A stretch of DNA of 64,000 bases from Rhodotorula mucilaginosa (taxonomy: Eukaryota > Basidiomycota > Microbotryomycetes > Sporidiobolales > Sporidiobolaceae). Every line of letters starts with the position of its first letter. Within the stretch, counting starts at the first letter, position 1. The stretch spans positions 558,001 through 622,000 of the forward strand of contig CP137867.1 of NCBI GenBank assembly GCA_034406715.1. The letters are read 5' to 3'. The notes under the pieces were generated by a model, which saw only the letters and a program-made list of their open reading frames with translations, was not told where the DNA came from and made no database searches. The position numbers and the translations under genes are program-made. This document shows positions 40,101 through 43,100 of the stretch, in pieces.

Positions 40101-43100
40101 ACCAGTCGCAGCGAGAGGAGCTCGCCCTCATCGAGCAGGCGTACGACAACCCTCACGAGACGCTCTCGCGCATCAAGCGTCTCCTCCTCACGCAGCGCGC
40201 GTTTAAGGAGGCCGGTATCGAGTTCTTCGACACGTACGACAAGCTCATCCCGTGCTACGACATCGAGCCGATGGAGAAGATCACCGATGCCTACCTCGAC
40301 CAGTTCCTCTACTTCGAGGCGGACAAGCGCGGTCTCTTCCCCTCGTGGATCAAGCCGGCCGACACTGAGCCGGCGCCGCTCCTCGTCTACAAGTGGTGCC
40401 AGGGAATCAACAACCTGCACGAAGTCTGGGAGACGAGCGAGGGCGAGTGCAACGTCCTCATGGAGACGCAGCTATCCAAGGTGTACGAGAAGATCGACTT
40501 GACGCTCCTCAACCGACTCTTGCGTCTCATCATGGACCACAATCTGGTGCGTCCCAGTCTTCTGTAGTGCTCACCGAGTCGGATTTCCTAACGACTCTGC
40601 GTCTCCAGGCGGACTACTGCACGGCCAAGAACAACATCGTCCTGACGTACAAGGACATGTCGCACGTCAACGCGTACGGTCTCATTCGTGGACTTCAGTT
40701 CTCGTCCTTCATCTTCCAGGTACGTGCATGTTCGAGCCTGTTGCAAGGCGCTCGAGCTGACCCCTTTCCCTGCAGTACTACGGTCTCATTCTCGACCTGC
40801 TCATCCTCGGCTTGCAACGTGCGAGCGAGATGGCCGGTCCTCCGCAGATGCCGAACAACTTCTTGCAGTTCCGCGACACGGCGACCGAGACTCGTCACCC
40901 GATCCGCCTGTACTCGCGCTACATCGACCGCATCCACATCATGTTCCGCTTCACGGCCGACGAGTCGCGCGACCTCATCCAGCGGTACCTCAGCGCCAAC
41001 CCCGACCCGAACAACGAGAACTTGATCGGCTACAACAACAAGAAGTGCTGGCCGCGAGACTGCCGGATGCGCTTGATCAAGCACGACGTCAACCTCGGTC
41101 GCGCCGTCTACTGGGACATCAAGAACCGTCTGCCGCGCTCGCTCACGACGATCGACTGGGAGGACACGTTCGTGTCGGTCTACTCGAAGGACAACCCCCA
41201 GCTGCTCTTCTCGATGTCGGGCTTCGAGGTCCGAATCCTGCCGAAGATCCGGAACGTCAACCAGCAGTTCACCCTCAAGGATGGCGTATGGTGAGTTTTC
41301 GGTCTTGCCTACTTCTCGTCTTATTATTGCGCTCACACCCGTTGCCGGCAGGAACCTCACGAACGAGGCGACGAAGGAGCGGACCGCGCAAGCGTTCCTT
41401 CGAGTTTCGGAGAAGGGCATCGTAAGCGATCGTTTCTTTCGATTCGCGCATGGCCCGTGCGCATATATTTGTGAGTATGTACTGATTGTGTCGTCGCCTA
41501 TAGGAGCAATTCCAGAACCGAATCCGTCAGATCCTCATGTCGTCCGGTTCGGCGCCGTTCTCAAAGGTGCGCTCTGTCCTAGAATCCGGTTCTTGCCATG
41601 CATAGCTGACTCCCGCACTTCATATCTACCGTATAGATCATCAACAAGTGGAACACGGTCAGTCACGATGCGGCGGGCGAGCGACATCGACGGAGCCGAG
41701 TGATCTCGCTTACCTGTCTTTGCGCTTACAGGCAATCATCGGCCTCATGACCTACTACCGCGAGGCAGTCATCCACACGAACGAGCTGCTCGATCTGCTC
41801 GTCAAAGCCGAAAACAAGGTCCAGACTCGCGTCAAAATCGGCCTGAACTCGAAGGTGCGTCCGGCTTTCGTTCTTTCCCGACTCGGGGTCACTTTTATTG
41901 ACCCATAGGCTCTACAGATGCCTTCTCGCTTTCCTCCGGTCGTGTTCTACAGGCGAGCAAACAAGCGTTATACGGACTCTCGAAGCAAGCTGACCTGAAC
42001 TCCACTCTCACCCGTTTCCCTCCCTCTTTCCTTCGCTTCCCTCGATCGTTCTGCAGCCCTAAGGAGCTCGGGGGTCTCGGCATGCTGTCCATGGGCCACA
42101 TCCTCATCCCGGCATCCGACCTGCGCTGGAGCAAACAGACCGACGCCGGCATCTCGCACTTCCGCGCCGGCATGGGTGGCGGGCACTCGGAGGTCCTCAT
42201 TCCCAACTTGTTCCGCTACATCCAGCCTTGGGAGGCCGAGTTCTTGGATTCGGCCCGTGTGTGGTCCGAGTACGCGCTCAAGCGGAAGGAGGCGAACGCC
42301 CAGAACCGCCGACTCACGCTCGAGGATTTGGAGGACTCGTGGGACCGCGGTATCCCCCGGATCAACTCGCTCTTCCAGAAGGACCGGCACACTCTCGCCT
42401 ACGACAAGGGCTGGCGTGTCCGTGTCGAGTTCAAGGCGTACCAGCTGCCGAAGCACAAGTGCGTCCGAGCTTCGCCTTTTTCTCGCTTCTTGCCCCTGCT
42501 CACTCGTGCTTGCACTACAGCCCCTTCTGGTGGACGTCTCAGAGGCACGACGGCAAGCTGTGGCAACTCAACAACTACCGCGTCGACGTCATCGCCGCGC
42601 TTGGAGGAGTTGAGGGTATTCGTGAGTTTCTTGAGCACACTCCCCTAGGCTTCCGCTCAAGTCGCTGATTTTGCTCTTCCATTGCCTTTCCGCCTTTCCT
42701 ACAGTTGAGTACGTGGACAGCCCATGGAGGACCCTGAGATCGGAACGGGAGCTGACCTGCTGCGTGTTTCTGCGAATCTCGTCTTCCCGCGTTTCTCCGC
42801 GACCTCCTCGACCCGTACACGGCTTTTTCCACCCTAGACACACACTATTCAAGGCCACAGCTTTTCCGACATGGGAGGGTCTCTTCTGGTGCGTCTCGCC
42901 GCTTTTTACGGCCTCTTCGCGCTTTTTCGCTCCCTTTTTCGCCCCCGACTTCTACTGATGCTTCTACACGTTCCTACGTACCGCCTAAAGGGAGAAAGCG
43001 TCAGGTTTCGAAGAAAGTCGTCGAATTCTACGCGTTTACGAGCCTCCGGGGTGACCAGAATGAACTGACCGAGTTTCCCGCACCTTTTCCCCTTTCCCAC

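What the first reader, a model, noticed from the sequence alone, without database searches (positions are those of the whole stretch)
42622..42837. Four-nucleotide microexon (TTGA) in PRP8
PRP8 is so conserved that the protein tells how it must be spliced. Human Prp8 reads GGVEGILEHTLFK. Here exon 15 ends GGT ATT C (42621) and the downstream exon starts A CAC ACA CTA TTC (42838). Only TTGA at 42705-42708 supplies the missing L-E in frame, and it is flanked by CCTACAG on the left and GTACGT on the right, with introns of 83 and 129 nt. Exon lengths for the whole gene sum to a multiple of three only when these 4 nt are included. An exon this short is hard for most gene finders, and it lies in the gene for the spliceosome's own core.
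Basis: partly seen in the sequence, partly recalled or inferred. Interest (0 to 1): 0.8.

Follow-up and report, generated by a model that had tools for sequence, protein, structure and literature searches.

The report
Four-nucleotide exon in a yeast PRP8
In a red yeast, the gene for the central protein of the splicing machine appears to need a four-letter exon to be read correctly; exons this small are known elsewhere, but this one sits in a row of tiny exons that encode a part of the protein that handles splice sites.

Summary
The window carries a complete PRP8 gene (37165-46061, + strand, 24 exons, 2348 aa). TTGA lies at 42705-42708 between CCTACAG and GTACGT, with introns of 83 and 129 nt. 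With it the protein reads GGVEGILEHTLFK, as in Rhodotorula graminis. Of 203 listed homologues, 172 matched a 56-residue block there; all 172 have the Leu and Glu. Combined protein and splice-site scoring favours the microexon by 17-25 bits. No shuffle of 5000 gave the peptide with sites as strong.

One correction: TTGA is not the only way to keep frame. A donor 4 nt downstream (42626) gives IREHTLFK, but that site is very weak and replaces the conserved Leu by Arg.

TTGA opens a run of small exons (4, 51, 22, 11, 13 nt) leading into Prp8's alpha-finger. Intron 18 (43013-43106) appears to be GA-AG, and introns 15-20 have distant branch-site matches. No transcripts and no relative's DNA could be checked.

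Verdict: very probably a real microexon, a new member of a known kind (fungal exons down to 1 nt are published). The clustering, the GA-AG intron and an intronic near-copy of the coding sequence are the less ordinary parts.

The parts
37165..46061 (+). PRP8 gene, 24 exons, 2348 aa (coding span including stop)
   Evidence: Exons placed by hand and translated; 93.8% identity to R. graminis P0005 over 2348 positions, indels only in the first 54 residues and at 383-386
42521..42621 (+). Exon 15, ends GGT ATT C
42622..42704 (+). Intron 15, 83 nt, GTGAGT..CAG; branch-site match CTGAT 42665-42669, 36 nt before the 3' end, no AG between
   Evidence: Donor 5.9 bits, acceptor 11.8 bits; branch-site consensus CTRAY is recalled
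42705..42708 (+). Exon 16, the 4-nt microexon TTGA; supplies TT of a Leu codon and GA of a Glu codon
42709..42837 (+). Intron 16, 129 nt, GTACGT..TAG; branch-site match CTGAC 42752-42756, 82 nt before the 3' end, no AG between; open in frame throughout
   Evidence: Donor 1.5 bits, acceptor 6.8 bits; retention keeps frame, 43 extra residues
42838..42888 (+). Exon 17, 51 nt
42626..42837 (+). Rival single intron GTTTCT..TAG (exon 15 ending at 42625), would give IREHT
   Evidence: Donor -11.2 bits, +5 base not G while 19 of 19 training donors have G
42628..42640 (+). TTCTTGAGCACAC inside intron 15: near-copy (12 of 13) of the mRNA across the microexon
   Evidence: 1 of 2000 shuffles of intron 15 as good; best of 23 introns examined
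42991..43012 (+). Exon 18, 22 nt
43013..43106 (+). Intron 18, apparent GA-AG intron (GAAAGT..CAG)
   Evidence: best GT/GC-AG path 10.6 bits lower
43107..43117 (+). Exon 19, 11 nt, ESM and part of K
43201..43213 (+). Exon 20, 13 nt, end of K then FKKL
41953..42056 (+). Intron 13, GC-AG (GCGAGC..CAG)

Best explanation
TTGA (42705-42708) is a constitutive 4-nt exon of PRP8. By inference the spliceosome recognises the two short introns around it one at a time, across the intron and not across the exon. Intron 15 is removed through the branch-site match at 42665-42669 and the first AG after it (42704), joining ATTC to TTGA. That leaves ATTCTTGA|GTACGT, a donor that now has a full exon in front of it; intron 16 is then removed through the branch-site match at 42752-42756 and the first AG after it (42837). 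The opposite order works equally well on paper. The result is ATT CTT GAA CAC, I-L-E-H. Leaving the exon out shifts the frame and gives an early stop, so inclusion is needed for full-length Prp8. Shown here: the sequence, the frame, the conserved peptide, the site scores. Inferred: that RNA is spliced this way, the order, and that inclusion is constitutive.
For: Exact peptide ILEHTLFK as in R. graminis, S. salmonicolor, Puccinia and others and in the solved C. elegans and human proteins. Fixed block length in 172 of 203 listed homologues, with L and E in 172 of 172. Free combined alignment picks TTGA at 345.8 bits; 328.5 without acceptor 42704, 329.0 without donor 42709. With GT/GC-AG only, 335.2 with and 310.2 without acceptor 42704. 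0 of 5000 shuffles gave the peptide with sites as strong. A pattern from this place has one match in the 20.35-Mb genome, and the protein search hit only this locus.
Against: No RNA evidence. Donor 42709 scores only 1.5 bits against 4.8-12.6 in the 19 training introns, because the exon bases TGA are unusual. One search, with a flat price per intron, preferred the path without the microexon. The site model was trained on introns of the same gene. Whether any relative has the same split could not be tested: no close relative's DNA was found.
Confidence: 0.92

Rival explanations
1. No microexon: exon 15 ends 4 nt later at 42625 and one 212-nt intron (42626-42837, GTTTCT..TAG) is removed, giving [13 protein letters not shown].
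For: In frame with one intron fewer; preferred by the flat-price alignment.
Against: Donor -11.2 bits, no G at +5 against 19 of 19; explicit scores 11.4 bits for the microexon path and -13.7 for this one; Leu in 172 of 172 block matches; leaves the strong acceptor at 42704 and the GTACGT 4 nt later unexplained.
Confidence: 0.03
2. Exon 16 is long (42705-42888): intron 16 is kept, and the protein carries 43 extra residues between LE and HTLFK.
For: Intron 16 is 129 nt, a multiple of 3, without in-frame stop; removes the need for the weak donor 42709.
Against: Block length fixed in 172 of 203 listed homologues, none of the 4 other measured lengths exceeding 65; with donor 42709 barred the best path is 16.8 bits worse. 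It could still occur as a minor isoform.
Confidence: 0.02
3. The odd features reflect sequence errors or a decayed gene copy.
For: GAAAGT at 43013 is one base from GTAAGT, as a single error or mutation would leave it.
Against: The protein search found one PRP8 locus in this genome; the model is 93.8% identical to R. graminis with no internal stop. An error at 43014 would not touch TTGA.
Confidence: 0.02

Closest known systems
One-nucleotide exon of CYP621A in Fusarium (PMC12940212; passages seen)
   Same: Fungal nuclear gene; tiny exon inside a conserved motif; needed for the frame; found by protein conservation.
   Different: There 1 nt, in many orthologues and with transcript reads; here 4 nt, one genome, no reads.
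Microexons of bglA in basidiomycetous yeasts (PMC9142197; passages seen)
   Same: Basidiomycetous yeasts including a Rhodotorula; many short introns, shortest exons 5 and 6 bp, a GC-AG intron next to microexons.
   Different: A glycosidase gene; 4 nt is slightly shorter.
Microexons of P450 genes in Phanerochaete chrysosporium (PMC1184071; passages seen)
   Same: Basidiomycete, short introns, shortest exon 6 bp.
   Different: A large variable gene family; PRP8 is a highly conserved gene found once here.
GA-AG introns (PMC7072748; passages seen)
   Same: Intron 18 starts GA, ends AG, and has A after GA as in Eurytemora and Oikopleura.
   Different: Bases before GA are AA, not the conserved AG; the one U1 gene found here has the standard 5' end and not the variant proposed for Eurytemora. 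That paper reports GA-AG at lower frequency in all species analysed, so use in fungi is not new as such.

Membership tests
Microexon (coding) | Very short exon (under about 30 nt) between two spliceosomal introns | tested here: met
   4 nt between GTGAGT..CAG and GTACGT..TAG
Microexon (coding) | Required for frame and conserved peptide | tested here: met
   Skipping gives a stop after 27 codons; L-E in 172 of 172 block matches among 203 proteins
Microexon (coding) | Inclusion seen in RNA | not testable with these tools
   No transcript data available
Microexon (coding) | Same split in relatives | not tested
   No relative's PRP8 DNA was obtained; viral contigs gave none, genome contigs one 71% contig that I did not analyse
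GA-AG intron (intron 18) | GA at the 5' end and AG at the 3' end, forced by the protein | tested here: inconclusive
   Preferred by 10.6 bits over GT/GC-AG paths, but the model admits GA only through a pseudocount, and one base error would make it GT-AG
GA-AG intron (intron 18) | Variant U1 able to pair with the donor (proposed for Eurytemora) | tested here: not met
   The one U1 hit, 36.4 bits and below Rfam's cut-off of 69.5, has ATACTTACCTG; 41 of 272 candidates were scored, so further copies are not excluded
Stwintron (intron nested in an intron; recalled) | Removal of the inner intron creates the outer intron's splice site | tested here: not met
   Both introns have complete sites of their own with 4 nt of coding sequence between them
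Introner (repeated intron-making element; recalled) | Many similar copies in the genome | tested here: not met
   42610-43430 matched only itself in the genome; that search skips very common words

The most novel reading that the evidence does not exclude
The part of Prp8 that handles the branch point and 3' splice site is encoded by a run of exons that should be the hardest in its own gene to splice (4, 51, 22, 11 and 13 nt, an apparent GA-AG intron, long branch-to-3' splice site distances). The spliceosome's core protein would then report on its own competence: a weakened spliceosome fails on this stretch first. Splice choice between 42621 and 42625 could even exchange a conserved Leu for Arg just before the alpha-finger.
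Probability: 0.08. Interest if true: 0.8.

Novelty: new member of a known kind. Interest (0 to 1): 0.42.

Why it matters
It gives the likely correct protein for an essential gene (essentiality recalled) in a red yeast and shows how an automatic gene model could go wrong here. One stretch of one gene, the gene for the splicing machine's own core, combines a 4-nt exon, further tiny exons, an apparent GA-AG intron and distant branch points. That makes it a natural test piece for how a 4-nt exon is recognised and whether a GA donor is used alongside a standard U1.

Tried and rejected
A flat-price spliced alignment preferred a path without TTGA (exon 15 to 42625) and with a 4-nt GAAA exon ending in a GC donor at 43111, giving EESRKFKKL. 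Rejected after site scoring (donors 42626 -11.2, 43020 -10.8, 43111 -6.4) and because Leu and Met at these places occur in 172 of 172 block matches.

With only GT/GC-AG allowed, exon 18 is best read to 43050 with a net insertion of seven residues. I prefer GA-AG because exon 19 then supplies ESMK exactly and the block keeps its length, but the 10.6-bit margin flatters GA-AG, as the site model admits GA only through a pseudocount.

Stwintron and introner readings did not fit. A variant U1 was not found. Relatives' DNA: viral contigs gave none, genome contigs one 71% contig not used further. No entry named for R. toruloides is among the listed proteins; it may sit inside the R. graminis cluster of 29 members, which I could not open. 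Pfam on ten long window frames gave two matches, both below the curated cut-off.

Full report
What is there. The + strand of the window at 37165-46061 carries one complete PRP8 gene. I placed its exons by hand from splice signals and the known protein and checked them in a script: 24 exons, 7047 nt with the stop, 2348 aa. The protein aligns to Rhodotorula graminis Prp8 over 2348 positions at 93.8% identity, with indels only in the first 54 residues and at 383-386. A search of the 20.35-Mb genome with the central part of the protein gave six matches, all exons of this locus. The organism is a red yeast close to R. graminis, probably Rhodotorula toruloides (inference from genome size and protein; not tested).

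The microexon. The coordinates in the finding are right. ATT C + TTGA + A CAC gives I-L-E-H. Two searches listed 203 different proteins (the best 120 of 3269, the best 120 of 3080). Of these, 172 matched a pattern for the surrounding block at exactly 56 residues, and all 172 have Leu and Glu at the two positions. Of the 31 others, 27 did not match the pattern (I did not inspect each), and 4 gave lengths of 52, 54, 59 and 65. A first count on the 120 proteins found 118 with the fixed length; the other two, P0029 and P0119, also read ILEH at this place.

Is it more than chance, and is there an alternative? I scored splice sites with position weights from 19 introns of the same gene, leaving out introns 15, 16, 18 and 19. 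All 19 donors have G at +5. Donor 42622 scores 5.9, acceptor 42704 11.8, donor 42709 1.5 and acceptor 42837 6.8 bits; training donors range from 4.8 to 12.6, so the second donor is weak, mainly through the exon bases. A combined protein and splice-site alignment chose the microexon freely, 345.8 bits; with acceptor 42704 barred the best was 328.5, with donor 42709 barred 329.0. With GT/GC-AG introns only, the figures with and without acceptor 42704 were 335.2 and 310.2. Against this, an earlier alignment with one flat price for every intron preferred exon 15 extended by GTGA to 42625, giving I-R-E-H. So TTGA is not the only way to keep the frame, but that donor (GTTTCT) scores -11.2. In 5000 dinucleotide shuffles, 21 held any AG-exon-GT giving GILEHTLF, and none did so with both sites as strong.

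How it works. Both introns are short, each has a CTRAY branch-site match (consensus recalled), and in each the acceptor used is the first AG after it. Recognition across the intron, one intron after the other, needs no room on the exon. Skipping TTGA or retaining intron 15 leads to an early stop; retaining intron 16 keeps the frame and would add 43 residues. That RNA is in fact spliced so is inferred.

The neighbourhood. Exons 16-20 measure 4, 51, 22, 11 and 13 nt. By the alignment the microexon corresponds to human L1485-E1486, and the Met of exon 19 to human M1513 and, taking the equal-length ranges of that table as ungapped, to yeast 1585. In yeast the branch-point cross-link maps between 1585 and 1598 (PMC4830896, passages), and the 1585-loop or alpha-finger binds the 3' splice site region (PMC6461851, passages). 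On this mapping exons 19-21 encode that loop. The pocket for the first intron base includes human 1543-1566 (PMC10943123, passages), which falls almost wholly in exon 22 here. Introns 15-20 are longer than the others (83-209 against 56-104 nt; Mann-Whitney p 0.001), and their branch-site matches lie 32-82 nt from the 3' splice site against 14-27 in 12 of the 13 others that have a match, the thirteenth being the GC-AG intron 13 at 63 (p 0.003). Four of the other introns have no CTRAY match. The group was chosen after seeing the exons, so these p values are only descriptive. A possible reason, inferred only: a branch site far from the AG lets early recognition leave the AG free, with room for U1 on a donor 4 nt away.

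GA-AG intron. Exons 18 and 19 give GFEESMKF, as in R. graminis and the solved S. pombe and C. elegans proteins, if the cut falls before GAAAGT at 43013, which is GTAAGT with one base changed. The best GT/GC-AG path is 10.6 bits lower and inserts seven residues. A single sequence error at 43014 would make the intron ordinary. The one U1 gene found, below Rfam's cut-off, has the standard 5' end. A survey reports GA-AG at low frequency in all species analysed (PMC7072748, passages), and two papers on fungi in the listing mention GA-AG; I did not open them.

A near-copy in the intron. Six bases into intron 15 lies TTCTTGAGCACAC, matching the mRNA across the microexon at 12 of 13 positions and in the reading frame of exon 15. 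It scored best among the 23 introns; 1 of 2000 shuffles of intron 15 reached it, so with 23 introns examined the evidence is modest. An unrelated 10-base match elsewhere in the coding sequence scores the same. It could be a relic of uninterrupted coding sequence, or chance.

Comparison and verdict. Tiny exons are known in fungi: 1 nt in Fusarium CYP621A with transcript reads (PMC12940212, passages), shortest exons of 5 and 6 bp in bglA of basidiomycetous yeasts including a Rhodotorula (PMC9142197, passages), 6 bp in Phanerochaete P450 genes (PMC1184071, passages). No listing showed a paper on this exon; they cover open-licence papers and top results only. The finding is a well-supported new member of a known kind. 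Its setting, not its size, is the interesting part.

Noticed in passing
43013-43106: Apparent GA-AG intron (GAAAGT..CAG) in PRP8, or a one-base error or mutation of GTAAGT; U1 hit in the genome has the standard 5' end.
   Followed up: partly
42628-42640: Intron 15 holds a 12-of-13 near-copy, in frame with exon 15, of the coding sequence across the microexon (LEHT).
   Followed up: partly
42622-43422: Introns 15-20 are longer and have more distant branch-site matches than most other introns of the gene.
   Followed up: partly
41953-42056: GC-AG intron 13 (GCGAGC..CAG), branch-site match 63 nt from the 3' splice site.
   Followed up: no
21524-21609 and 47230-47315, - strand: Two tRNA genes of identical 86-nt sequence (identical for 24 more bases upstream and 6 downstream); ARAGORN could not type them, perhaps because of an intron; by eye possibly tRNA-Tyr.
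   Followed up: partly
L009, 3279-4241: A contig filed under a Rickettsiaceae MAG encodes a Prp8 relative (71% identity in the best segment), so it is probably eukaryotic contamination.
   Followed up: no
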